From: Microlunatus endophyticus
GTDB lineage: Bacteria; Actinomycetota; Actinomycetes; Propionibacteriales; Propionibacteriaceae
NCBI RefSeq assembly: GCF_014646195.1
Contig: NZ_BMMZ01000017.1
Location: 1-64,000, forward strand
DNA length: 64,000 nucleotides
Reading direction: 5' to 3'
Under the pieces are notes generated by a model. That model was not told the origin of the DNA. It did not search any database and was given only the letters and a program-made list of their open reading frames with translations. Positions within the stretch are counted from its first letter, which is position 1. Each line of letters begins with the position of its first letter. Shown piece by piece: positions 6,856 through 27,377 of this stretch. The position numbers and the translations under genes were made by a program.

Positions 6856-7640
6856 TGCAGTACACGAGCCTTCGGGTGCTCGACGTCGCCGCGGGCGGGT
6901 CTATCGACATCGAGACAGCTGGCGAGGAACTGATCGTGGTGCCGTTGGCGGGGTCGGCAGCCGTCAGCTGTGACGGCAGGATCTACGAGCTCGTGGGCCG
7001 GGAATCGGTCTTCGCCGGACCCAGTGACTTCTGCTATCTGCCGATCGGTCGTACGGTTTCGGTCTCGTCACCGACGGGCATCCGCTTCGCGCTCTGCGGC
7101 GCGGCAACCGACCAGGAGCTGCCCTTCCGCTACGGCGCCGCCTCGGACGTGCCGATCGAACTCCGGGGTGCCGGACAGTCCAGCCGGCTGGTACGCAATT
7201 TCGGTACGGTCGGGTCGTTCGACACCGCGAAGCTGATCGCCTGTGAGGTGATCACGCCGGACGGCAACTGGTCGTCCTATCCGGCGCACAAACATGATCA
7301 TTCCAGCGAGACGGAGTCGGTGCTGGAGGAGCTCTACTACTTCGAGATCGCCGGCGGACCGCGCGGCGAGCCGGGTTTCGGGTATATGCAGACGACTGCC
7401 TCGGACGATCGGCCGATCGATCTGCTGCAAGAGGTCCGTGACCGGACGATCATCGAGGTCCCGTACGGATGGCACGGCCCCTGTGTGGCGGCACCCGGTT
7501 TCGAGATGTACTACCTGAATGCGATGTCGGGCCCCGGACAGGAGCGGGCGTGGTTGATCACCGATCACCCCGACCATGCTTTCGTCCGGGCGTCCTGGGA
7601 CGGTCAGCAGATCGATCCCAGGCTGGAAAGGAGACGATGA
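6855..7640 (+). CDS. iolB: 5-deoxy-glucuronate isomerase
   Basis: IolB converts 5-deoxy-glucuronate to 2-deoxy-5-keto-gluconate. The 261-residue bicupin shows the expected second-cupin metal motif PAHKHDHSSETESVLEELYYF, with His and Glu ligands, then YGWHGPCVAAPGFEMYYLN carrying the last His. ATG 6855 overlaps the previous stop (TGATG), indicating translational coupling. Its own TGA overlaps the iolD start region. Confidence 0.93.
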   Translation: MQYTSLRVLDVAAGGSIDIETAGEELIVVPLAGSAAVSCDGRIYELVGRESVFAGPSDFCYLPIGRTVSVSSPTGIRFALCGAATDQELPFRYGAASDVPIELRGAGQSSRLVRNFGTVGSFDTAKLIACEVITPDGNWSSYPAHKHDHSSETESVLEELYYFEIAGGPRGEPGFGYMQTTASDDRPIDLLQEVRDRTIIEVPYGWHGPCVAAPGFEMYYLNAMSGPGQERAWLITDHPDHAFVRASWDGQQIDPRLERRR

Positions 7641-9568
7641 TGTCGGAAACGGAGCTGGAGAAGGCACGAGAGACGGTCAGGCTGACCGTCGCCCAGGCGA
7701 CGATCAGGTTCCTGGCCAACCAGTGGACCGAACGCGACGGCGCCCAGCAGCGACTCTTCGCCGGCTCGATCGGGATCTTCGGGCACGGCAACGTGGCCGG
7801 ACTCGGTCAGGCACTGCTGCAGGCCGAGGTCGACGAACCGGGCAGCATGCCCTACATCCTGGCCCGCAACGAGCAGGGCGCGGTGCACACCGCGGTCGCG
7901 TTCGCCCGGGCCAGGAACCGGTTGCAGACCTACGCCGTCACGACCAGCATCGGCCCAGGCGCGACGAACATGATCACCGGGGCGGCGCTGGCAACGATCA
8001 ACCGAATCCCGGTGCTGTTGCTGCCCGCCGACGGTTTCGCCGCCCGGCACGCATCGCCGCTGCTGCAGGAGCTCGAACGCCCGGAGGCCGGCGATATCTC
8101 GGTCAACGATGCGTTCCGGCCCGTCTCCCGCTATTTCGACCGGGTCTCCCGGCCCGAACAGCTGCCCTCCGCGCTGCTCGGTGCGATGCGGGTGCTGACC
8201 GACGTTGCCGAGACCGGTGCGGTCACGGTCTGTTTCCCCCAGGACGTCCAGGCGGAGGCGTACGACTGGCCGCAGGCGCTGTTCGCCAAGCGGGTCTGGC
8301 GGCTGGGCCGTCCGCAGCCCGAGCCGGCATTGCTGGAGCGGGCGGCACAGTTGATCACTGCGGCACAGCGGCCGCTGATCGTCGCGGGCGGCGGCGTGCA
8401 CTACAGCCAGGCCGAGGACGCCCTGCAGGCGTTCGCCGAGCAGACCGGGATTCCGGTCGGTCTCAGCCAGGCGGGCAAGGGCGATCTGGTCGATGATCAT
8501 CCACAGTGTCTCGGGGCGATCGGCTCGACCGGGACGACGGCGGCCAACGCGATCGCCCGGGACGCCGACCTGGTGATCGGGATCGGCACCCGGTACTCCG
8601 ACTTCACCACCGCCAGCCGCTCGGCCTTCCAGGATCCGGGAGTCCGGTTCGTCAACATCAACGTCGCCGGTCTGGATTCGATCAAGGAAGCCGGTCTGCC
8701 GCTGCTCGCCGACGCGCGGGACACCCTGACCGCTCTCGCCGGCCTGGTCGGTGATCACCGGGTCTCCGCCGACTACACGGCCAGGATCACCGCCTTGAAA
8801 GCCGAATGGGATGCCATCGTCGACGACGCCTACCATCCGGCGGTCCCGGCCGCCGGCGACGGCGGGCTGCTCAGCCAGAACGAAGTGATCGGAATGGTCA
8901 ACGAGCAGTCCGACTCCCGTGACGTGCTGGTGTGTGCAGCCGGGTCGATGCCCGGAGATCTGCACAAGATGTGGCGGACCCGTGATCATGGTGGCTACCA
9001 CGTCGAATACGGCTATTCCTGTATGGGCTATGAGATCGCCGGCGGGCTCGGTGTCAGACTGGCGGATCCGAGCCGGGACGTGTTCGTGATGGTCGGCGAC
9101 GGCTCCTATCTGATGCTGTCCAGCGAACTGGTCACCGCGATCCAGGAGGGCGTCAAGATCATCGCCGTCCTGGTGCAGAACCACGGCTTCGCCTCGATCG
9201 GTTCACTGAGCGAGTCGCTGGGGTCGCAGCGGTTCGGCACCCGGTACCGGAGGCGTACGGGATCGGGTCGGTTGGACGGCGACCTGCTGCCGGTCGACCT
9301 CGCCGCCAACGCCGCCAGCCTCGGGGCAGACGTGATCAAAGCCAATACGGCCGACGAGTTCGTCGCCGCGATCAGGACCGCCAAGCAGGCCGACCACACG
9401 GTCGTCATCCACGTCGAGACCGACCCGTTCATCGACGCACCCGACTCCGGGTCCTGGTGGGACGTGCCGGTCAGCCAGGTCTCGACCCTTGACTCGACCC
9501 AGCAGGCGTACCAGGACTACCAAGATCACAAGAAGGCACAGCGGATCTACCTGGATCCTCATGACTGA
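7637..9568 (+). CDS. iolD: 3D-(3,5/4)-trihydroxycyclohexane-1,2-dione hydrolase
   Basis: This thiamine-diphosphate enzyme opens the inositol-derived diketone ring to give 5-deoxy-glucuronate. The 643-residue protein follows the acetohydroxyacid synthase plan: an N-terminal PYR domain with the Glu of NEQGAVHTAVAFA, a central Rossmann-like domain (about 200-340), and a C-terminal PP domain. The PP domain carries the TPP motif GDGSYLMLSSELV through QNHGFASIG. The start is ATGATG at 7637/7640, with a strong GGAAAGGAG ribosome site. It overlaps the stop of iolB. Confidence 0.94.
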   Translation: MMSETELEKARETVRLTVAQATIRFLANQWTERDGAQQRLFAGSIGIFGHGNVAGLGQALLQAEVDEPGSMPYILARNEQGAVHTAVAFARARNRLQTYAVTTSIGPGATNMITGAALATINRIPVLLLPADGFAARHASPLLQELERPEAGDISVNDAFRPVSRYFDRVSRPEQLPSALLGAMRVLTDVAETGAVTVCFPQDVQAEAYDWPQALFAKRVWRLGRPQPEPALLERAAQLITAAQRPLIVAGGGVHYSQAEDALQAFAEQTGIPVGLSQAGKGDLVDDHPQCLGAIGSTGTTAANAIARDADLVIGIGTRYSDFTTASRSAFQDPGVRFVNINVAGLDSIKEAGLPLLADARDTLTALAGLVGDHRVSADYTARITALKAEWDAIVDDAYHPAVPAAGDGGLLSQNEVIGMVNEQSDSRDVLVCAAGSMPGDLHKMWRTRDHGGYHVEYGYSCMGYEIAGGLGVRLADPSRDVFVMVGDGSYLMLSSELVTAIQEGVKIIAVLVQNHGFASIGSLSESLGSQRFGTRYRRRTGSGRLDGDLLPVDLAANAASLGADVIKANTADEFVAAIRTAKQADHTVVIHVETDPFIDAPDSGSWWDVPVSQVSTLDSTQQAYQDYQDHKKAQRIYLDPHD

Positions 9569-10460
9569 AGGAACTGAATTGATCACTATCGGGTCTGCAC
9601 CCGACTCCTGGGGCGTGTGGTTCGCCGACGATCCCGAGCAGATCGACCCCGGCCGTTTCCTCGACGAGGTCGCCGAGGCGGGCTACACCTGGATCGAGCT
9701 CGGTCCGGTCGGCTATCTGCCCACCGACGCCCAGGAACTCCAGGACCAACTCGACGCCCATGGACTGAAGGTGTCCGCCGGGACGGTCTTCGAGCACCTG
9801 CACCAGCCCGATTCCTGGGATGACGTCTGGCAACAGGTGTCGACGGTCGGCGCGCTGACGCAGGCCGTCGGTGGCGAGCACATCGTCGTGATCCCGGACG
9901 TCTGGCGCGATCACAAGACCGGCGAGCCGAAGGAGCCCCGCGAGCTCACCGTCGAGCAGTGGAAGCTGATGACCGACGGGATGAACGAGCTGGGCAAGCG
10001 GATCGCCGACGAGTACGGCCTCAAGGTCCAGTTCCACAGCCACGCGGACAGCCACGTCGGCTACCAGGTTGATATCGAACGCTTCCTGGCCGCCACCGAT
10101 CCGGCGTATGTGAACCTGTGCCTGGACACCGGCCACGTCGCCTACTACGGCGGCGACAGCCTCGACCTGATCAACCGGTTCCCGGAGCGGATCGGCTACC
10201 TGCACCTCAAGCAGGTCGACCCGGCGATCCGTGACACCGTGCTCGCCCAGGACCTGTCCTTTCCCGAGGCAGTACGCCGCGGCGTGATGATCGAGCCGCC
10301 GGCCGGCGAGCCCGATCTCGGGCCGATCCTGGACGCGGTGGGCCACCTGGGCCGACCGCTCTACGGGATCGTCGAGCAGGATCTCTATCCGTGCCCGCCT
10401 GACGTGCCGCTGCCGATCGCACAGCGCACCTTCACCTATCTGAAGAACTGCGTCGCATGA
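9561..10460 (+). CDS. iolE: Inosose (2-keto-myo-inositol) dehydratase
   Basis: IolE removes water from scyllo-inosose. The 299-residue TIM barrel of the xylose-isomerase-like family begins TEGTELITIGSAPDSWGVWF, the characteristic IolE opening. Metal-binding positions are suggested by FHSHADSHVG, LCLDTGHVAYYGG, YLHLKQVDP and GIVEQDLYP. The ATG at 9561 overlaps the iolD stop by eight bases, and the stop forms ATGA with iolG. Both overlaps point to strict operon translation. Confidence 0.93.
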   Translation: MTEGTELITIGSAPDSWGVWFADDPEQIDPGRFLDEVAEAGYTWIELGPVGYLPTDAQELQDQLDAHGLKVSAGTVFEHLHQPDSWDDVWQQVSTVGALTQAVGGEHIVVIPDVWRDHKTGEPKEPRELTVEQWKLMTDGMNELGKRIADEYGLKVQFHSHADSHVGYQVDIERFLAATDPAYVNLCLDTGHVAYYGGDSLDLINRFPERIGYLHLKQVDPAIRDTVLAQDLSFPEAVRRGVMIEPPAGEPDLGPILDAVGHLGRPLYGIVEQDLYPCPPDVPLPIAQRTFTYLKNCVA

Positions 10461-11467
10461 GTGATCTTCGGGTCGCCGTGCTCGGCGTCGGGATGATGGG
10501 CGGATTCCATGTCGAGACGCTGAGCCGACGCGTGCACGGGGCTACCGTCTCGGTGATCAACGACTACGACCAGGCCAAGGCTGTGGCTGTGGCCGGGTCG
10601 ATCGGTGCGAGGACCGAATCCGATCCGCTGGCCGCGATCAACGCCGACGATGTCGATGCGGTGGTGATCGCCAGTCCGGGCACGGCCCACGAGCAGCAGG
10701 TGCTGGCCTGCCTGGACCGCGGCATCCCGGTACTGTGCGAGAAGCCGCTGACGGTCGATCCGGTCAGTGCGCTCGAGGTCGTGAAGGCGGAGCGGCGTAC
10801 TGGGAAACAGCTTGTGCAGTTGGGATTCATGCGGCGGTTCGACCCGGAGTATGCAGCGGCCAAACAACTGATCGACTCCGGCGAGCTGGGCCGGGTGCTG
10901 TTGCTGCACTGTGTCCACCGCAACATGGCCAACGGCCCGCACTTCGACTCGGCGATGATGATCACCGACTCGGTGGTGCACGAGGTCGACGTCGCCCGGT
11001 TCCTGCTGGGTGAGGAGATTGCCTCGGTGCAGGTGCTGAAGCCGACGGCCACCTCCGCGGCACCAGAGGGCGTCTCGGACCCGATGATCGTGATCTTCCG
11101 GACCGGGAGCGGCGTGATCGTCACGGTCGAGATCTTCGTCAGGGCGCAGATCGGCTATGAGGTGCGGACCGAGGTCGTCGGGGAGCGGGGGAGCACGCTC
11201 TTCGGTCTGGACCAGCACGGCATCACCAAGCTCTCCGGACCGGATGGCAGCGGGCGGTGGGGCGGCCTGGTGCCGCCCGGATTCATCGAGCGGTTCGCGC
11301 CGGCATATCAGATCGAGCTGCAGCACTGGGTCGATGCGGCACGCACCGGTGGCATCGACGGTCCGGGTGCCTGGGACGGTTATGCGGCGGCGGCGGTTTG
11401 CGCGGCCGGAGTGGAGGCGGTGCGCACCGGTGAGGTCGTCCCGGTGACACTGGGATCGATCGAGTAG
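10457..11467 (+). CDS. iolG: Inositol 2-dehydrogenase (Gfo/Idh/MocA family)
   Basis: IolG oxidises myo-inositol to scyllo-inosose, the first step of the pathway. The 336-residue protein has an N-terminal Rossmann fold with VLGVGMMGGFH (dinucleotide loop) and the Gfo/Idh/MocA motif CEKPLT. Its C-terminal alpha/beta domain includes FMRRFDPEY and DSVVHEVDVARFLLG with the catalytic-region His/Asp. Its start overlaps iolE (ATGA). Paralogues acting on other polyols exist, but the operon context favours inositol. Confidence 0.9.
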   Translation: MSDLRVAVLGVGMMGGFHVETLSRRVHGATVSVINDYDQAKAVAVAGSIGARTESDPLAAINADDVDAVVIASPGTAHEQQVLACLDRGIPVLCEKPLTVDPVSALEVVKAERRTGKQLVQLGFMRRFDPEYAAAKQLIDSGELGRVLLLHCVHRNMANGPHFDSAMMITDSVVHEVDVARFLLGEEIASVQVLKPTATSAAPEGVSDPMIVIFRTGSGVIVTVEIFVRAQIGYEVRTEVVGERGSTLFGLDQHGITKLSGPDGSGRWGGLVPPGFIERFAPAYQIELQHWVDAARTGGIDGPGAWDGYAAAAVCAAGVEAVRTGEVVPVTLGSIE

Positions 11468-11496
11468 GAAACGAAGCGAAGGATGGGTTGCTGATC

Positions 11497-13014
11497 ATGG
11501 CAGGGTCGAACGAGCAGTCGGACAAGCAGACGATCAATCACTGGGCGGCCGGAGCGGAATTCGCCGGCACCTCGGGCAGGTTCGGCGATGTCACCGACCC
11601 GGCGACCGGAGCGGTCACCGCACAGGTGGCGTTCGCCTCGGAGCAAGATGCCGATCAGGTGATCGCGGCGGCGGCCAAGGCCTTCCCGGCCTGGCGCGAC
11701 ACCTCGCTGACCAAGCGGGTCCAGGTGCTCTTCCGGTTCCGCGAGCTGCTCAACCAGCGGTCCGGCGAGGTGGCGGAGATCATCACCTCCGAGCACGGCA
11801 AGGTGCTCTCCGATGCTGCCGGCGAAGTCAGTCGCGGCCAGGAGGTCGTCGAGTTCGCCTGCGGAATCCCGCATCTGATCAAGGGCAGCTTCACCGAGAA
11901 TGCCTCCACCGGCGTCGACGTGCACTCGGTCCGGCAGCCGCTCGGCGTGGTCGGCATCATTTCGCCGTTCAACTTCCCGATCATGGTGCCGCTGTGGTTC
12001 ACGCCGATCGCGATCGCGGCCGGCAACGCCGTGGTGCTCAAGCCGAGCGAGAAGGATCCCGGTGCCGCCCTGTGGATGGCCAGGCTGTGGAAGGAGGCCG
12101 GACTGCCAGACGGTGTCTTCAACGTCCTGAACGGCGACAAGACCGCGGTCGACGCGCTCCTCGGTCATAATCAGGTCAAATCGATCTCCTTCGTCGGCTC
12201 GACACCGATCGCCCGCTATGTCTACGAGACCGCAACCGCCAACGGCAAGCGGGTGCAGGCGCTCGGCGGTGCCAAGAACCACATGGTGGTCCTGCCGGAT
12301 GCCGATCTCGATCTTGCTGCCGATCAGGCGGTCAATGCCGGTTACGGATCGGCGGGGGAACGCTGCATGGCGATCTCGGCGGTCGTCGCCGTCGGCACCA
12401 TCGGCGACGAGCTGGTGGCCAAGATCAAGGAACGGACCGAGAAGCTCAAGATCGGCGACGGGCGCCGCGACAGCGACATGGGCCCGGTCGTCACCAAACA
12501 GGCCCAGGACAAGATCACCGGCTACATCGGCGCCGGCCAGGAAGCTGGAGCGACGCTGATCGTCGACGGCCGCGACGTGACACCGGATTCCGATGGCGAC
12601 GGCTTCTTCGTCGGACCGACGCTTTTCGATCATGTCGGCCGGGAGATGTCGATCTACACCGACGAGATCTTCGGCCCGGTGCTCTCGGTCGTCCGGGTGG
12701 AGACCTACGAAGAGGCCATCGACCTGATCAACAAGAACCCGTACGGCAACGGCACCGCGATCTTCACCAACGACGGCGGCGCCGCCCGGCGCTTCCAGAA
12801 CGAGATCGAGGTCGGCATGATCGGGATCAATGTTCCGATCCCGGTGCCGATGGCGTACTACTCCTTCGGCGGCTGGAAATCCTCGCTCTTCGGAGACACC
12901 CACGCGCACGGTGTCGAGGGTGTGCACTTCTTCACCCGCGGCAAGGTGATCACCTCCCGCTGGCTCGATCCCTCGCACGGCGGCATCAATCTGGGCTTCC
13001 CGCAGAACTCCTGA
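11497..13014 (+). CDS. mmsA: CoA-acylating methylmalonate/malonate-semialdehyde dehydrogenase
   Basis: This enzyme (also called IolA) converts malonate semialdehyde to acetyl-CoA and CO2, ending inositol breakdown. The 505-residue aldehyde dehydrogenase has SPFNFPIMVPLWF at the cofactor site, ALGGAKNHMVV (the MMSDH-type variant with Asn in place of the usual general-base Glu), and the catalytic Cys in GSAGERCMAIS. The C-terminus has YSFGGWKSSLFGD. I start at ATG 11497; an in-frame TTG at 11488 lies closer to the AAGGA ribosome site and cannot be excluded. It lies 29 bases after iolG and ends the operon. Confidence 0.92.
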   Translation: MAGSNEQSDKQTINHWAAGAEFAGTSGRFGDVTDPATGAVTAQVAFASEQDADQVIAAAAKAFPAWRDTSLTKRVQVLFRFRELLNQRSGEVAEIITSEHGKVLSDAAGEVSRGQEVVEFACGIPHLIKGSFTENASTGVDVHSVRQPLGVVGIISPFNFPIMVPLWFTPIAIAAGNAVVLKPSEKDPGAALWMARLWKEAGLPDGVFNVLNGDKTAVDALLGHNQVKSISFVGSTPIARYVYETATANGKRVQALGGAKNHMVVLPDADLDLAADQAVNAGYGSAGERCMAISAVVAVGTIGDELVAKIKERTEKLKIGDGRRDSDMGPVVTKQAQDKITGYIGAGQEAGATLIVDGRDVTPDSDGDGFFVGPTLFDHVGREMSIYTDEIFGPVLSVVRVETYEEAIDLINKNPYGNGTAIFTNDGGAARRFQNEIEVGMIGINVPIPVPMAYYSFGGWKSSLFGDTHAHGVEGVHFFTRGKVITSRWLDPSHGGINLGFPQNS

Positions 13015-13024
13015 AGGGCGATGC

Positions 13025-14566
13025 TCAGAGCTGGCCCGGGTAGAAGCCGTGTCGGGCCAACGGCTCGACCAGCTCGCGCTCCTCGTAGGCCAGATGGGAG
13101 AGCAGAGTGTCGGTGAGCAGATCGACGGCCTCCTGCAACTCGGTGTAGTCGCCGGGATGCTCGATCACGCCGACGAGTCGGCGGTCGACATCCTGGAGCA
13201 CCTCGTGGATCACGTGGTGCTCATCGGTGAGCCGGTCGAGGACCGCGCCCAGCTCGTGATCAGCCGCGCGCAGATTGGGAAAGACGGCCTGGTCCTCCAG
13301 CGTGTGGTGCTCGGCGACGGTCCGGCAGTAGGCCGCGCAATAGGCGCCGAGGGTCCAGTCGTTCTGCCGCATGGTCAACTCGTTGATCACCGATCGTGCC
13401 CGGCCGATGTCCAGCGCACCACTGCGCACCTGGTTGATCACGTCGCGCACGGTCTCGAGCTCTTGGCGTAGATGATCATGGACGTCGATCAGGTGTTGGC
13501 CGGCCATCCGACCACGGTCGGTATAGGTGACATCGGGGCCGGAAGCACTCCGGTGCGGTCGGGCGGACTCGTCCCAGAGCGTGCGCTGTGCCAGCCGGGC
13601 GCCACTGTCCGCGGTCGGGCGGATGCCGAGCCGGTCATATTCGGACCCGTCGTCGGTCGGCGTGACGGACTGATCATGGTCCAGGTCCGCCTCGGCGCCA
13701 TCCGTCGGTGAGGTGTCGGTGTGCACGGCACGGGCTGCAGCCACCCGCTCGCGTACCTCGGGGGCGATGCCGGCGAAGTGTTGCAGGACCGCCGGATCGT
13801 CGCCCATCACGATGAAGGTGTCGATGCCTTCGGTCAGCGCCAGCTCGACCAGATGATCCGGGTCGGCGTCGGTGACGTTGAGGAGTCTGCGGATGTCGGA
13901 CGGCTCACGGCCGGCGGTCCGGGCGGCATCGTCGATGATGGTGTTGCCGCGGGTCAGGTCACCCGGTTGCAGATACGGCTCGGACGGCAGCCAGCCGTCA
14001 CCGAGCCGGCCGGTCAGCCGCAGGATCCGTGGCTTGTACGCGCCGATCCAGATGCCGACCGGATGGGCCGGCGCCGGGCCGCGCTTGGCGCCGTGGAGTT
14101 GATAGTAGTGGCCGTCGAAGCGGACGCCGCCGCGCTGGTCGGCATCCCAGAGCTCGCGGATGATGGTGATCGCTTCCCCCAGCGCTGCAACGGATTCGCC
14201 CGGCTGCAGCCGTCGGCCGCCCATCGCTTCGATGGCGTCCCAGAATCCGCCGGCACCGATCCCGAGTTCGATCCGGCCGCCGGTGAGCAGGTCGAGGCTC
14301 GCCACGCTCCGGGCCAGCACCGCCGGTGGCCGGAGCGGGAGATTGGTGACGTTGCCGCTGATCGCGATCCGCTCGGTGCGTGCGGCGACATAACTGATCA
14401 AGGTCCAGGTGTCGGAGAAGCCGGCCTGATAGGGGTGGTCCTGGAAGGTCACCAGGTCGAGTCCGAGTTGTTCGCTCAGCTGGGCCAGGTGGACGGCCCG
14501 CTGCGGATCGGCGTTCGCCGGCGTGATGAAGCTGCCGAAGCTGAGCTCGCGGCCGTAGTCCGGCAT
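13025..14566 (-). CDS. Luciferase-like (LLM) flavin/F420 oxidoreductase fused to a hemerythrin-like domain
   Basis: A 513-residue two-domain protein. Residues about 1-300 are a luciferase-like TIM barrel (SFITPANADPQRAVHLAQL, YVAARTERIAISGNVTN, GGRIELGIGAG, a cofactor-binding pattern). Residues about 370-513 match an HHE/hemerythrin four-helix bundle, with VHDHLRQELE, EHHTLEDQAVFPNL, DEHHVIHEVL and HLAYEERELVEPL supplying regularly spaced His/Glu di-iron ligands. A charged linker joins them. The start chosen (MPDYGREL) has GAGGGA upstream; ATG 14599 would fall inside the inverted repeat. It is divergent from a MarR regulator. The substrate is unknown. F420 use is plausible because fbiA and fbiB lie in this window, but FMN cannot be excluded. 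Confidence 0.85.
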   Translation of the reverse strand: MPDYGRELSFGSFITPANADPQRAVHLAQLSEQLGLDLVTFQDHPYQAGFSDTWTLISYVAARTERIAISGNVTNLPLRPPAVLARSVASLDLLTGGRIELGIGAGGFWDAIEAMGGRRLQPGESVAALGEAITIIRELWDADQRGGVRFDGHYYQLHGAKRGPAPAHPVGIWIGAYKPRILRLTGRLGDGWLPSEPYLQPGDLTRGNTIIDDAARTAGREPSDIRRLLNVTDADPDHLVELALTEGIDTFIVMGDDPAVLQHFAGIAPEVRERVAAARAVHTDTSPTDGAEADLDHDQSVTPTDDGSEYDRLGIRPTADSGARLAQRTLWDESARPHRSASGPDVTYTDRGRMAGQHLIDVHDHLRQELETVRDVINQVRSGALDIGRARSVINELTMRQNDWTLGAYCAAYCRTVAEHHTLEDQAVFPNLRAADHELGAVLDRLTDEHHVIHEVLQDVDRRLVGVIEHPGDYTELQEAVDLLTDTLLSHLAYEERELVEPLARHGFYPGQL

Positions 14567-14586: not shown

Positions 14587-14624
14587 GTTGATACGTCATC
14601 CTCTGTGTTGGATGATACATCAAC
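14587..14624. promoter_or_regulatory. Candidate MarR operator: 15-8-15 imperfect inverted repeat
   Basis: Arms at 14587-14601 (GTTGATACGTCATCC) and 14610-14624 (GGATGATACATCAAC) match at 12 of 15 positions around an 8-base centre. They lie in the 80-base gap between the divergent oxidoreductase (start 14566) and the MarR gene (start 14647). Position and symmetry fit a MarR-dimer site controlling both genes. Confidence 0.6.
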
Positions 14625-14646: not shown

Positions 14647-15132
14647 ATGACGGTCGAAGCAGAGCGAGCGATCAGCGCCGAGCAGGAGCTGGGCTGGCGG
14701 CTTTACTACCGGATGCAGACCCAGCTGCTGGGCGTGCTGAACCGGGAACTGACCCAGGAGACCGGACTGTCCGAGGCCGACTATGAGGTCCTCATCACCT
14801 TGCTGGAGAGCCCGGACCACACGGTGCGGGCCCGCGAGATTCGGGCTGCCCTGATCTGGGAGAAGAGTCGGTTGTCGCACCAGTTGCGGCGGATGGAGGA
14901 GCGTGGTCTGGTCCGCCGCGACGACTGTGTCGAGGATGCCCGTGGCGCGATGGTGATCATGACCCCGGTGGGGCAGGAGATCATCGAGCGGGCGGAATGC
15001 GCGCGGCTGCGGGCCGTGAACGATCACCTGATCGGGGTGCTCAGCGAAGATCAGCTCCGGGCGTTGGGCGATATCAGCGAGACCGTGCTCGCCCATCTCG
15101 GCATCGCCTGCGCGGCTCACCAGGAAGTGTGA
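14647..15132 (+). CDS. MarR-family transcriptional regulator
   Basis: A 161-residue winged-helix regulator. It has a dimerisation helix (about 8-35), LSEADYEVLITLLES, the recognition region VRAREIRAALIWEKSRLSHQLRRMEERGLVRR, and a wing with Asp/Arg residues at about 95-105. A C-terminal helix closes the dimer. The start is the ATG giving MTVEAERA; upstream codons would run through the inverted repeat. Divergence from the LLM-hemerythrin gene with a shared palindrome suggests that it represses that gene and itself, released by an unknown small molecule. Confidence 0.88.
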   Translation: MTVEAERAISAEQELGWRLYYRMQTQLLGVLNRELTQETGLSEADYEVLITLLESPDHTVRAREIRAALIWEKSRLSHQLRRMEERGLVRRDDCVEDARGAMVIMTPVGQEIIERAECARLRAVNDHLIGVLSEDQLRALGDISETVLAHLGIACAAHQEV

Positions 15133-15199: not shown

Positions 15200-15787
15200 T
15201 TACTCACCGCTGCTCCGGAACCGGAGTGCGACCTCTTCCAACCTGGCAGTGTAATCGCGCCACCAGTCACGATCACCGGCGTCCGACCAGTCGGTGCCAG
15301 CGCGGCTGTCGATCAGCTCACGCAGGATCTGCAGCTGGCCCGCGTGCATCGACGTGTCCTTCAAGACCCGGGCCACCAGGCCGGCAGCGGTGGTGACGCG
15401 GACTTCCTCCGGCCACCAGGGAACGCTCGCCTCGGCGGCCGGTCCGACTTCTGCCAGCACGGCGTCGGAATGTGCACAGGCCCGCTGATAGAGCTCGACG
15501 ATGTAGTCGCCCGACTCGTCGGCCGTGGCCCACATGTCGCGGTTGGGGCCGAGCGACTCATCGGCGATCCACGGCAGCGGCTGCTCGAACGGATGGCCGA
15601 GGCAGACGCCGAGGTAGCCCGCCTCGATCCCGATCAGGTGTTTCACCACACCCAGCAGATTGGTCCCCGTCGGCGTCATGGGATGTCGGAGCTCGTACGC
15701 TCCCAGGCCTTCCACGCAGCCCAGCACCGTTTGCCGCGATTCCTGCAGGTAGCCGTGATCATCCTGGCGGATCGGTGTGGTCGGCAT
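15200..15787 (-). CDS. DinB/DUF664 family protein
   Basis: A 195-residue four-helix-bundle protein of the DinB family. In characterised members of the wider superfamily three His residues bind a metal and some act as thiol-dependent transferases. Here VVKHLIGIEAGYLG supplies the first His and DTSMHAGQLQILRELID a later one. Also visible are the W-rich segments EASVPWW and DRDWWRDY. The function of this member is unknown. The first 127 bases of the gene reappear as a diverged copy at 19620-19745, so the locus has been partly duplicated. Confidence 0.8.
   Translation of the reverse strand: MPTTPIRQDDHGYLQESRQTVLGCVEGLGAYELRHPMTPTGTNLLGVVKHLIGIEAGYLGVCLGHPFEQPLPWIADESLGPNRDMWATADESGDYIVELYQRACAHSDAVLAEVGPAAEASVPWWPEEVRVTTAAGLVARVLKDTSMHAGQLQILRELIDSRAGTDWSDAGDRDWWRDYTARLEEVALRFRSSGE
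15661..15787 (-). repeat. Direct repeat copy A (5' end of the DinB gene)
   Basis: This 127-base segment, the N-terminal coding part of the intact DinB gene, matches 19620-19745 closely by eye, including the start-proximal run through GGATCATCCTGGCGGAT-type sequence and the EGLGxYELRHPMTPTGT coding stretch. Both copies have the same orientation and bracket about 3.8 kb. Confidence 0.75.
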
Positions 15788-25213: not shown

Positions 25214-25232
25214 CGCTTCGACGGGCTCAGCG
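25214..25232. repeat. REP-like short palindromic element (CGCTTCGACGGGCTCAGCG)
   Basis: The element lies between convergent manC and fbiB and overlaps the fbiB stop. It matches the GCTTCGAC-xx-GCTCAGC pattern that I recall as dispersed in many high-GC actinobacterial genomes, usually between convergent genes. It may form a small hairpin or act as a mobile REP-type unit. Confidence 0.4.
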
Positions 25233-26123
25233 ATCGGGCGGTGGCCAGAGCGGCTGGGCTGCAGTGATCAACTTCCGGATCATGATCAGTTCCGGGTCGG
25301 TCAGCTCAAGATCAGCGGTGATGGCCGCGAGGAGCGCGTCGCGGTCCCACAGCCGTACGACGTCCTCGTAGCGGTCGGCGCGCCCGACCGCTGACAGGAT
25401 CGCGCCGAGGACAGCCTCCCGAGTGCCGCGGTAGAAAAGATCTTCCTCACCGGTCCGCAGCAACTCGCGGGCCACCGGTCCCGGGTCGACGACATGATCA
25501 CCGATGCCGCGGATGATCGCCACCGGATTGCCGCCCAGCTTGGTCTTGGCAAGATCGGCGGCCGCCGCCAGCTCGTCGGCGATCGCGATCGCCGTGACGT
25601 GCAGTTCGTTGCCGTAGCTGTCGACGCGGCCCGCATAGCGATCAAGGACCGTGACCCCTGCCGACCCGATCGCGTGGTCCGTCTGGCCGATCCGCCAGGC
25701 GCGACCGGCAGTGTCGGACATGATCACTCCGATCCGGACGCCGAAGCGTGCGGCCAGACCGGCCCGCAACCGCTCGGAACTGCCGTCCGGATCGGCCGGC
25801 AACAACAGGATCCGACCCTGATCGACATTGGAGTTGTCCACCCCGGCGCCGGCCTGGGTCAGCCCGTGGTGGGTCTCGACGATCCCCATCGATTGCCGAC
25901 GGGCGACGGTCCGTACGGTCTCGGAGTCGATCACCGACTGCCGGTCCTCGGCGTCGGCGAACCGGCCCTCGGCCTTGCTGACGATCTTGGACGTGATCAC
26001 CAGGACATCGCCGCCCCGCAGCCGGCTGCGGTCGGATGCCTGGGTCGCGTCACCGATCACCGTGACCAGGTCGGTGCCCGGGACGATCTCGCCGATGCCG
26101 GCAAGTGCGAAGATCTCGATCAC
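25227..26123 (-). CDS. fbiB: Coenzyme F420-0:L-glutamate ligase (single-domain FbiB/CofE)
   Basis: It adds the gamma-glutamate tail to F420-0 using GTP. The 298-residue protein starts at a GTG overlapping the fbiA stop. It shows the CofE fold: GDVLVITSKIVSKAEGRF near 40, the RTVARRQSMGIVETHHG segment, GVIMSDTAGRAWRIGQTDHAIG, DSYGNELHVTAIAIADELA (metal-binding Glu) and GNPVAIIRGIG. Mycobacterial FbiB has an additional C-terminal FMN-reductase domain. Here only ~50 residues follow CofE, so that domain is missing. A separate dehydro-F420 reductase would then be needed. Confidence 0.88.
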   Translation of the reverse strand: MIEIFALAGIGEIVPGTDLVTVIGDATQASDRSRLRGGDVLVITSKIVSKAEGRFADAEDRQSVIDSETVRTVARRQSMGIVETHHGLTQAGAGVDNSNVDQGRILLLPADPDGSSERLRAGLAARFGVRIGVIMSDTAGRAWRIGQTDHAIGSAGVTVLDRYAGRVDSYGNELHVTAIAIADELAAAADLAKTKLGGNPVAIIRGIGDHVVDPGPVARELLRTGEEDLFYRGTREAVLGAILSAVGRADRYEDVVRLWDRDALLAAITADLELTDPELIMIRKLITAAQPLWPPPDR

Positions 26124-27103
26124 TCGGTGGCCAGCTTCACGCCGTACTGGATGAAGCGGGAGGTTGCCGCCGGATCCTTCATGATCAGATCGGTGCTGAC
26201 CGCGGTCAGCCCGGCCTGTGCGAGCCGGGGGAGCAGACCGGCGTCGGTGTCGTCGATCACCCAGCCGTCCAGAATGCCACCGGCGGCACGGCTGCCGTAG
26301 TGCAGGCCGACCGCGGCAGCGTCCACGTCGACCCCGATCGCCGGCAGCAGGCGGTGCGCCATGCCCAGCACCGGAGCACCGGAGATGATCCCGGAGAAGC
26401 CGACGACGGGTGCCTTGGTCGCGATGATCGCGGTACGGATGCCGGGCACGGCCAACACCGGCCCGACCGACACGACGGGATTGCTGGGGGCCACCAGCAC
26501 CAGGTCGGCCTCGGTGATCGCCTCGATCACGCCGGGGGCGGGACGGGACTTCTCGATGCCCACCTGCAGCACCTGCCGGGCCTCGGGCTCGGCGTGCAGC
26601 TTCACCCAGTACTCCTGGAAGTGCACGGCCCGCACCCCGGAGGGTGCCGACGGAGCATCGATGACGACGTGGGTCTCGACCCTGTCGTCGGTCATCGGCA
26701 GCAGTTGCAGATGGTCGGAATCGGTCAGCCAGCGGGTGCACAACGCCTGGGTGACCGCTGAGAGCGGATAGCCGGCGTCCAACATCTGGGTGCGGACCAG
26801 ATGGGTGGCCAGGTCCAGGTCGCCGAGCCCGAACCAGGTCGGCTCGACGCCGTAGGCGGCCAGTTCGGCGCCGACCCGCCAGGTCTCGTCGGCCCGTCCC
26901 CAGCCGCGTTCGGGATCGATCGCGTCGCCCAGGCTGTACATCATCGTGTCCAGGTCGGGGGAGATGTGCAGCCCGTGCAGCCTGATGTCGTCGGCGGTGT
27001 TGACGATGACCGTCAACCGGGCGTCGGGGTAGGCGTGGCGTACTCCCCGGACGAAACGTGAACCACCGACGCCACCGGCGACAACCGCGATCTGCACGTC
27101 CAC
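26120..27103 (-). CDS. fbiA: 2-phospho-L-lactate/phosphoenolpyruvate transferase (F420 biosynthesis)
   Basis: FbiA (CofD) transfers the Fo deazaflavin onto the activated lactate/PEP moiety to make F420-0 or its dehydro form. I chose GTG 27103, giving 327 residues, the usual length; ATG 27136 would add 11. Motifs are IAVVAGGVGGSRFVRGV, VNTADDIRLHGLHISPDLDT, WFGLGDLDLATH, VLVAPSNPVVSVGPVLAVPG (substrate loop) and KAPVVGFSGII. It is translationally coupled to fbiB and divergent from whiB2 across about 380 bases. Confidence 0.9.
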   Translation of the reverse strand: MDVQIAVVAGGVGGSRFVRGVRHAYPDARLTVIVNTADDIRLHGLHISPDLDTMMYSLGDAIDPERGWGRADETWRVGAELAAYGVEPTWFGLGDLDLATHLVRTQMLDAGYPLSAVTQALCTRWLTDSDHLQLLPMTDDRVETHVVIDAPSAPSGVRAVHFQEYWVKLHAEPEARQVLQVGIEKSRPAPGVIEAITEADLVLVAPSNPVVSVGPVLAVPGIRTAIIATKAPVVGFSGIISGAPVLGMAHRLLPAIGVDVDAAAVGLHYGSRAAGGILDGWVIDDTDAGLLPRLAQAGLTAVSTDLIMKDPAATSRFIQYGVKLATE

Positions 27104-27377
27104 CAGTCTCGCATCGGGGGCGGTTCGGTCCAGCATCAGGGGATCCGCGTGGTCGCGGGCCGGCAAACCGGACTGCCGAGGGTGTTCGCCGAGCGCTCTC
27201 GAACGCAATATCCGGCGAGATCACAGACTGATCAATTCGGAAACCCGGATTCAAATTCTCTGCCAAATTCCCGATACCCGGTTCGGGGCGGCTCAACCAG
27301 CCTGTGAGCGCCGCCAACGAGCGGTTGGCCGGTGGCCCGCCGATGTGATATTGGCAGCGCTTCTACCATGCTCGCAC
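27104..27377. other. Non-coding stretch between fbiA and the whiB2 promoter
   Basis: No convincing gene or RNA is seen. The bases around 27200-27280 are noticeably more AT-rich than the flanking genes, consistent with promoter DNA for the divergent fbiA transcript. No specific element could be assigned. Confidence 0.5.

What the first reader, a model, noticed from the sequence alone, without database searches (positions are those of the whole stretch)
13025..14566. Luciferase-like oxidoreductase fused to a hemerythrin domain
The sequence shows an LLM barrel (about 1-300) and a C-terminal HHE bundle with repeated His/Glu ligand patterns in one frame. Established knowledge: LLM enzymes use F420 or FMN, and hemerythrin bundles bind di-iron for O2 or NO sensing. 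A fusion under MarR control suggests an oxygen- or NO-gated flavin/F420 enzyme. How common the fusion is, I cannot say.
Basis: partly seen in the sequence, partly recalled or inferred. Interest (0 to 1): 0.7.

Follow-up and report, generated by a model that had tools for sequence, protein, structure and literature searches.

The report
Luciferase-like enzyme fused to hemerythrin
A soil-type actinobacterium makes one protein that joins a luciferase-family redox enzyme to an iron-binding hemerythrin bundle with a conserved cysteine pair; the fusion is widespread in Actinomycetes, often paired with its own MarR switch, and I found no published study of it.

Summary
Window 13025-14566 (minus strand) is one uninterrupted 513-aa frame with a Pfam luciferase-like domain (PF00296, E 4e-47) and a hemerythrin domain (PF01814, E 8e-12). 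It is an established family: 97 distinct fusion proteins, nearly all from Actinomycetota, about 37 of 395 sampled Actinomycetia genomes. The di-iron ligand set is invariant (H363, H420xxxE424, H450, H491xxxE495; H454 in 94/97). So is a C410-x3-C414 just before the helix-B ligands.

MarR control is supported: a divergent MarR gene (14647-15132) faces it across two near-identical palindromic half-sites, one unique in the 5.1-Mb genome. MarR genes sit divergently beside at least 45 of 95 fusions and beside none of 39 unfused relatives.

F420 versus FMN is unresolved. The nearest solved folds are F420 enzymes and the genome has cofD/cofE, but two near-complete genomes carry the fusion without either. 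An unfused copy of the hemerythrin module lies in an operon with an FMN monooxygenase and FMN reductase. In sister clades an FAD (berberine-bridge-type) oxidase replaces hemerythrin. I read this as a MarR-inducible two-part redox enzyme rather than proven O2/NO sensing. New variant of a known kind; function untested.

The parts
13025..14566 (-). LLM-hemerythrin fusion gene, 513 aa, ATG start at 14566
13727..14566 (-). Luciferase-like (LLM) barrel, residues 1-280 (Pfam PF00296 13-232)
   Evidence: Z 30.9 to F420-dependent Mer 8qpl over 252 residues, rmsd 1.8
13646..13726 (-). Variable linker, residues 281-307; 287-305 predicted disordered (pLDDT < 50). E273-to-H358 spacing ranges 36-122 residues in 97 homologues
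13520..13645 (-). Conserved N-terminal arm of the hemerythrin module, residues 308-349 (family consensus PTPDxGxRL...WDExxRP); ordered in the model and present in stand-alone copies
13049..13519 (-). Hemerythrin-like bundle, residues 350-506; ligands H363, H420/E424, H450/H454, H491/E495 (E496 also invariant)
13325..13339 (-). Invariant C410-AAY-C414 (CxxxC) at the start of helix B, six residues before ligand H420
   Evidence: 97/97 fusions; all 45 representatives of the module, stand-alone ones included
14647..15132 (+). Divergent MarR-family regulator (ATG 14647 preferred over GTG 14605, which lies inside the operator region)
   Evidence: Pfam PF12802/PF01047; divergent MarR beside at least 45 of 95 fusion loci
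14611..14624 (.). Operator-like half-site TTGATGTATCATC, the only exact match of the degenerate pattern in the whole genome
14587..14600 (.). Second operator-like half-site (ATGACGTATCAAC), conserved in L119, L010 and L065

Best explanation
The gene encodes a MarR-inducible two-part redox enzyme. Shown: an N-terminal LLM barrel joined by a flexible linker to a C-terminal hemerythrin-like module with an intact di-iron ligand set and an invariant CxxxC, divergent from a MarR gene across a palindromic intergenic region. Inferred: when the MarR protein is released by its effector, probably a small aromatic or electrophilic compound or an oxidant, the LLM half performs hydride transfer or flavin-dependent oxygen chemistry on that class of compound with F420 or FMN. 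The tethered di-iron half then carries out the oxygen- or peroxide-side chemistry of the same process: a second catalytic step, or disposal of O2/H2O2 produced by the flavin. It occupies the slot that an FAD oxidase fills in sister clades. The CxxxC pair is inferred to be a redox-active or metal-tuning element beside the di-iron site.
For: Domains, frame and folds. Ligands and CxxxC invariant in 97/97. Divergent MarR in at least 45/95 fusion loci and in 0/39 LLM-only or BBE loci, with lineage-specific palindromes between the genes. In a Streptomyces plasmid the order is MarR(divergent)-MFS transporter-fusion, a layout typical of xenobiotic response (the MarR matches the same profile). Partner slot: the same LLM clade is fused to, or directly downstream of, a FAD_binding_4/BBE oxidase. 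The hemerythrin module also occurs in trans: in G413 and G406 it is a separate gene after a CE1758-family FMN monooxygenase (704 bits) and a CE1759 FMN reductase (266 bits). Variable flexible linker fits a tethered partner rather than a rigid relay.
Against: No substrate, cofactor or metal is shown. The hemerythrin fusions that have been characterised biochemically are described as sensors (PMC9388753). Stand-alone copies of the module also occur without any LLM or oxidase recognised nearby, so the partnership is not obligatory. The partner-swap branches in the tree have 90-93% SH-aLRT, not starred, from a quick tree. MarR counts come from related genomes and are not independent.
Confidence: 0.42

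Rival explanations
1. The hemerythrin module is a sensor: O2, NO or redox change at the di-iron site switches the LLM enzyme on or off.
For: Complete ligand set; [quoted passage not shown] an ordered N-terminal arm precedes the bundle, like the redox-mobile N-terminal loop of DcrH-Hr.
Against: The linker is disordered and varies from 36 to 122 residues and pTM for the whole is only 0.61, so no fixed relay is predicted; the module is replaceable by an oxidase enzyme and exists as a separate gene; MarR already gives a signal-responsive switch.
Confidence: 0.27
2. The hemerythrin module is a guard: it removes O2 or H2O2 leaking from reduced flavin, protecting the LLM active site, with no role in catalysis.
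For: The trans-acting copy sits with a two-component FMN monooxygenase and its FMN reductase, a pair expected to leak peroxide; the module's fold resembles the Rv2633c homologue 6q09 (Z 9.6) as well as DcrH (Z 10.7).
Against: If the LLM half uses F420 it need not leak peroxide, and F420 genes accompany nearly all fusions. A guard would not have to be covalently attached or replaced by an oxidase.
Confidence: 0.17
3. Cofactor question, not exclusive of the others: the LLM half is an F420-dependent hydride-transfer enzyme, as the nearest solved structures suggest, and not an FMN enzyme.
For: Best sequence and fold matches are F420 enzymes Mer and FGD; cofD over cut-off in 34 of 37 further fusion genomes, and a match in 33 of 33 good-quality ones; cofD and cofE lie 12 kb away in the window.
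Against: G078 (single contig, 99%) and G397 (98%) carry the full fusion but neither cofD nor cofE over cut-off. cofD enrichment over relatives is weak, 15/16 against 28/41, p 0.08. The whole genus of the window lacks FO synthase. The unfused module sits with FMN enzymes.
Confidence: 0.45
4. Nothing special: an accidental fusion with a passive or degenerate hemerythrin.
For: Annotation pipelines simply call the protein an LLM class flavin-dependent oxidoreductase.
Against: All primary ligands and both cysteines are invariant in 97 proteins at 50-70% identity, across many families.
Confidence: 0.04

Closest known systems
F420-dependent LLM enzymes (FGD1, Mer, Adf; PF00296, NCBIfam TIGR03619 group)
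   Same: Same barrel over residues 6-277, 23-29% identity, Z about 30; invariant DH motif at D43-H44.
   Different: Below the cut-off of every NCBIfam LLM family among the 25 best matches (best TIGR03619, 119 against 166.9 bits); carries a C-terminal hemerythrin module; two carriers lack F420 genes.
Bacterial hemerythrin-domain sensors (DcrH, Bhr-DGC, Bhr-HD-GYP)
   Same: Hemerythrin-like bundle fused to a functional domain; fold match to DcrH-Hr Z 10.7.
   Different: Hemerythrin is C-terminal to an oxidoreductase, not attached to a signalling output; motif ends HxxxE/HxxxxE rather than HxxxxD; extra invariant CxxxC and an N-terminal arm.
HHE proteins NMB1532 (2p0n), PF0695 (3cax), Rv2633c homologue (6q09), YtfE/RIC
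   Same: Best fold matches (Z 13.1, 12.2, 9.6); YtfE is the only hemerythrin among sequence-profile hits, at E 0.057. The H-HxxxE-H-HxxxE pattern is recalled for YtfE, not tested.
   Different: No significant sequence match to any solved hemerythrin at E < 0.001; no luciferase-like partner domain is known to me for them (from memory).
CE1758/CE1759 two-component FMN monooxygenase pair (TIGR04036/TIGR04037)
   Same: In G413/G406 the pair is followed by a stand-alone copy of this very hemerythrin module.
   Different: The window's LLM is not a CE1758 member (47.7 against a 479 cut-off) and has no reductase beside it.

Membership tests
Luciferase-like monooxygenase superfamily (PF00296) | Match above Pfam gathering score and LLM barrel fold | tested here: met
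   161.6 bits against 27.9; Z 25-31 to about 50 LLM entries
Named F420-dependent LLM families (NCBIfam TIGR03619, TIGR03560 and others) | Score above the curated cut-off | tested here: not met
   Best 119 bits against 166.9
F420-dependent enzymes | Use of coenzyme F420 | tested here: inconclusive
   cofD co-occurs widely but is absent with cofE from G078 and G397; binding not measurable here
Hemerythrin/HHE domain (PF01814) | Match above gathering score | tested here: met
   46.1 bits against 25.3
Hemerythrin/HHE domain (PF01814) | Di-iron ligand residues in the four helices | tested here: met
   H363, H420, E424, H450, H491, E495 invariant, H454 in 94/97
Bacterial hemerythrin-domain sensors | Canonical motif H-HxxxE-HxxxH-HxxxxD (as given in PMC9388753) | tested here: not met
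   Last motif is HxxxE with E at +5, no Asp; the rest fits
Bacterial hemerythrin-domain sensors | Fusion to an N- or C-terminal functional domain in one polypeptide | tested here: met
Bacterial hemerythrin-domain sensors | O2- or redox-dependent change of the partner's activity | not testable with these tools
   needs purified protein
CE1758 FMN-dependent LLM (TIGR04036) | Score above 479.1 bits | tested here: not met
   47.7 bits

The most novel reading that the evidence does not exclude
The CxxxC hemerythrin module is a dedicated di-iron/dithiol redox partner for luciferase-like flavin or F420 enzymes, working in cis or in trans, so that the fusion is a flavin- or F420-fed di-iron reductase of peroxide, NO or O2 and not a sensor.
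Probability: 0.13. Interest if true: 0.75.

Novelty: new variant of a known kind. Interest (0 to 1): 0.5.

Why it matters
Actinomycete genomes carry dozens of LLM enzymes of unknown substrate. This family gives three handles on one of them: a cognate MarR regulator with visible operators, a di-iron partner with an invariant cysteine pair, and natural swaps of that partner for an FAD oxidase. If the di-iron site proves catalytic rather than sensory, it would be a new pairing of deazaflavin/flavin hydride chemistry with non-haem di-iron chemistry. Two carriers without F420 genes make the cofactor question testable by comparing natural orthologues.

Tried and rejected
Stop or frameshift between domains: rejected. 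Chance or degenerate HHE: rejected by invariance. Conserved operon partners other than MarR: neighbour clustering found none beyond genus-level synteny, and reading 18 loci by eye found none. mmsA and the mycothiol-transferase-like neighbour of the window are not conserved beside other fusions. First MarR search by single-sequence phmmer found few homologues near fusions; a profile raised it to 40 (+5 whose frame runs antisense through the fusion gene). F420 as a proven universal cofactor: not upheld; G472 was first taken as a third exception but has cofE, so it was dropped. Fold search of the full model covers only the LLM half, so the hemerythrin part was folded alone. Foldseek alone gave no significant hit for that module (E > 0.1); VIA-align then ranked HHE proteins and DcrH among its top rows, at Z values that helical bundles can reach by chance. 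A p53 hit of the HHE profile is spurious. Literature: searches of the open-access library found no paper on this architecture; subscription papers were not searchable.

Full report
What is there. The finding's coordinates are right and the strand is minus. Reading 14566->13025 gives 513 codons without a stop; the plus strand is not coding here. Pfam finds Bac_luciferase (PF00296, residues 13-232, E 3.8e-47) and Hemerythrin (PF01814, residues 359-500, E 8.4e-12), both above their gathering scores. AlphaFold2 on 45 homologues gives mean pLDDT 89.1 but pTM 0.61, with residues 287-305 disordered: two well-formed domains on a flexible tether. The LLM part aligns to F420-dependent Mer (8qpl, Z 30.9, 252 residues, rmsd 1.8) and FGD, then to FMN enzymes. 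The hemerythrin module folded alone reaches pTM 0.88. Its best fold matches include the HHE protein NMB1532 (Z 13.1), PF0695 (Z 12.2) and DcrH-Hr (Z 10.7), modest values for a helical bundle; the sequence family and ligands carry the assignment.

How common. A scan of genome contigs returned the maximum of 80 loci, all matching essentially the full length. With the loci from genome searches I collected 97 distinct fusion proteins. In an even sample of 395 Actinomycetia genomes the module was found strongly in about 50; of those fetched, about 37 including the window's own are LLM fusions and about 11 are separate genes. The range covers Propionibacteriaceae, Micromonosporaceae, Streptosporangiaceae, Nocardiopsidaceae, Kineosporiaceae, Frankiaceae and others, plus MAGs labelled Solirubrobacteraceae and Acidobacteria. 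Annotation pipelines call it simply an LLM class flavin-dependent oxidoreductase.

The di-iron site and the cysteines. In all 97 fusions H363, H420, E424, H450, H491 and E495 (and H358, H421, D425, E449, E496) are invariant, and H454 is present in 94. With more distant and stand-alone modules added, the set that never changes includes H363, H420, H421, E424, H450, H491, E495 and E496, plus C410 and C414; H358 and H454 drop out. The motif is therefore H-HxxxE-H(xxxH)-HxxxE. It differs from the H-HxxxE-HxxxH-HxxxxD of the reviewed bacterial sensors (PMC9388753) in the last acid. The cysteine pair CxxxC, six residues before ligand H420, is present in every one of 45 representatives. I found no description of it; its role is inferred. 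A conserved arm (PTPDxGxRL...WDExxRP) precedes the bundle, is ordered in the model and travels with the module when it is a separate gene.

Regulation. A MarR-family gene (14647-15132, plus strand) faces the fusion. The 80-bp gap holds two near-identical palindromic half-sites at 14587-14600 and 14611-14624. With one mismatch the window has four matches to the pattern against 0.31 expected, all of them at these two sites, and the exact pattern occurs once in the 5.1-Mb genome. The pattern was written after seeing the sites, so these counts measure rarity rather than give an independent test; the independent support is that three other loci with a divergent MarR keep the sites. Micromonospora and Nonomuraea loci have different palindromes in the same gap. 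A MarR profile finds a divergent, adjacent MarR at 40 of 97 fusion loci, plus 5 whose MarR frame runs on antisense through the fusion gene (two of the 97 have too little upstream sequence to tell). None is found beside 39 LLM-only or BBE-associated relatives with 1.5 kb of flank (Fisher p 3e-9, not corrected for relatedness). In Streptomyces plasmid NZ_CP109587 the order is MarR (divergent), MFS transporter, fusion, which looks like a xenobiotic-response cassette.

Partner exchange. In a quick LG+C20 tree of LLM domains, HHE fusions share a supported clade (96*) with a minority of proteins of other design. Five carry a C-terminal FAD_binding_4/BBE oxidase instead of hemerythrin. Nine unfused members lie directly downstream of such an oxidase gene. 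Conversely, in two genomes of the window's own genus (G413, G406) the hemerythrin module is a separate gene behind an LLM of the CE1758 FMN-dependent family (704.5 bits) and a CE1759 FMN reductase (265.9 bits) whose start overlaps it. The module thus keeps company with two different LLM families, and the LLM clade with two kinds of redox partner. Other stand-alone copies have no such neighbours that I could recognise.

Cofactor. For F420: nearest folds and sequences are F420 enzymes, cofD and cofE lie in the window (25227-27208), and cofD was matched in all 33 good-quality fusion genomes of one set. Against: the enrichment over relatives is weak (15/16 against 28/41, p 0.08); G078 (one contig, 99% complete) and G397 (98%) carry the full fusion but neither cofD nor cofE over threshold; the trans-acting module sits with FMN enzymes. 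I leave this open, near even.

Most likely mechanism. Shown: anatomy, invariance, MarR divergence, partner exchange. Inferred: a MarR-inducible oxidoreductase whose LLM half acts on a small xenobiotic-like compound, and whose tethered di-iron/dithiol half handles the oxygen- or peroxide-side chemistry of the same process. Because an oxidase enzyme can take its place and the tether is long and variable, I favour a catalytic or auxiliary partner over a sensor, but only modestly (0.42 against 0.27 for sensing and 0.17 for a guard role; the F420 rival concerns the cofactor and is not exclusive of these).

Comparison with the known. It is a member of the LLM superfamily and of the HHE family. It is not a member of any named NCBIfam LLM family among the best matches, all below cut-off, and does not meet the canonical sensor motif. 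The fusion as such is present in databases under a generic name; no paper on it was found in the open-access library.

Noticed in passing
window 25227-27208 (-) and same-genus genomes: cofE and cofD are present, but no FO synthase (CofG/CofH/FbiC) is found in the window's genome or in any same-genus genome tested, including several complete ones (only a trace CofH match in G399); other orders score 450+ bits. Possible FO uptake or an unrecognised FO synthase. The same pattern (cofD, no CofG/CofH) appears in Pedococcus, Ornithinimicrobium, Nakamurella, Segeticoccus and Actinotalea genomes.
   Followed up: partly
L093 148-2382 (-), L100, L101, L130 103-2346 (-), L096 2512-3900 (+): The same LLM clade fused to a berberine-bridge-type FAD oxidase; in G041 (L152) an LLM-BBE fusion is directly followed by a second, unfused LLM gene.
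   Followed up: partly
L148 4740-7481 (-), L149 4944-7646 (-): Operon of CE1758 FMN monooxygenase, CE1759 FMN reductase and a stand-alone CxxxC hemerythrin gene.
   Followed up: partly
L208 (Streptomyces plasmid NZ_CP109587.1, 412428-421960): The fusion is carried on large Streptomyces plasmids; in this one it lies behind an MFS transporter with a divergent MarR gene, and a sulfurtransferase and a second LLM gene follow on the other strand.
   Followed up: no
window 15200-15787 (-): A mycothiol-S-transferase/DinB-like gene (PF04978) just beyond the MarR gene; not found beside other fusions.
   Followed up: partly
window 7469-13014 (+): A run that looks by eye like an inositol-catabolism cluster (IolD-, IolE-, IolG- and MmsA-like), convergent with the fusion and apparently unrelated.
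   Followed up: no
L029 (contig JANWJC010000143.1, labelled Acidobacteria MAG): A fusion from an Acidobacteria-labelled MAG sits inside the actinobacterial part of the tree: horizontal transfer or a mis-binned contig.
   Followed up: no
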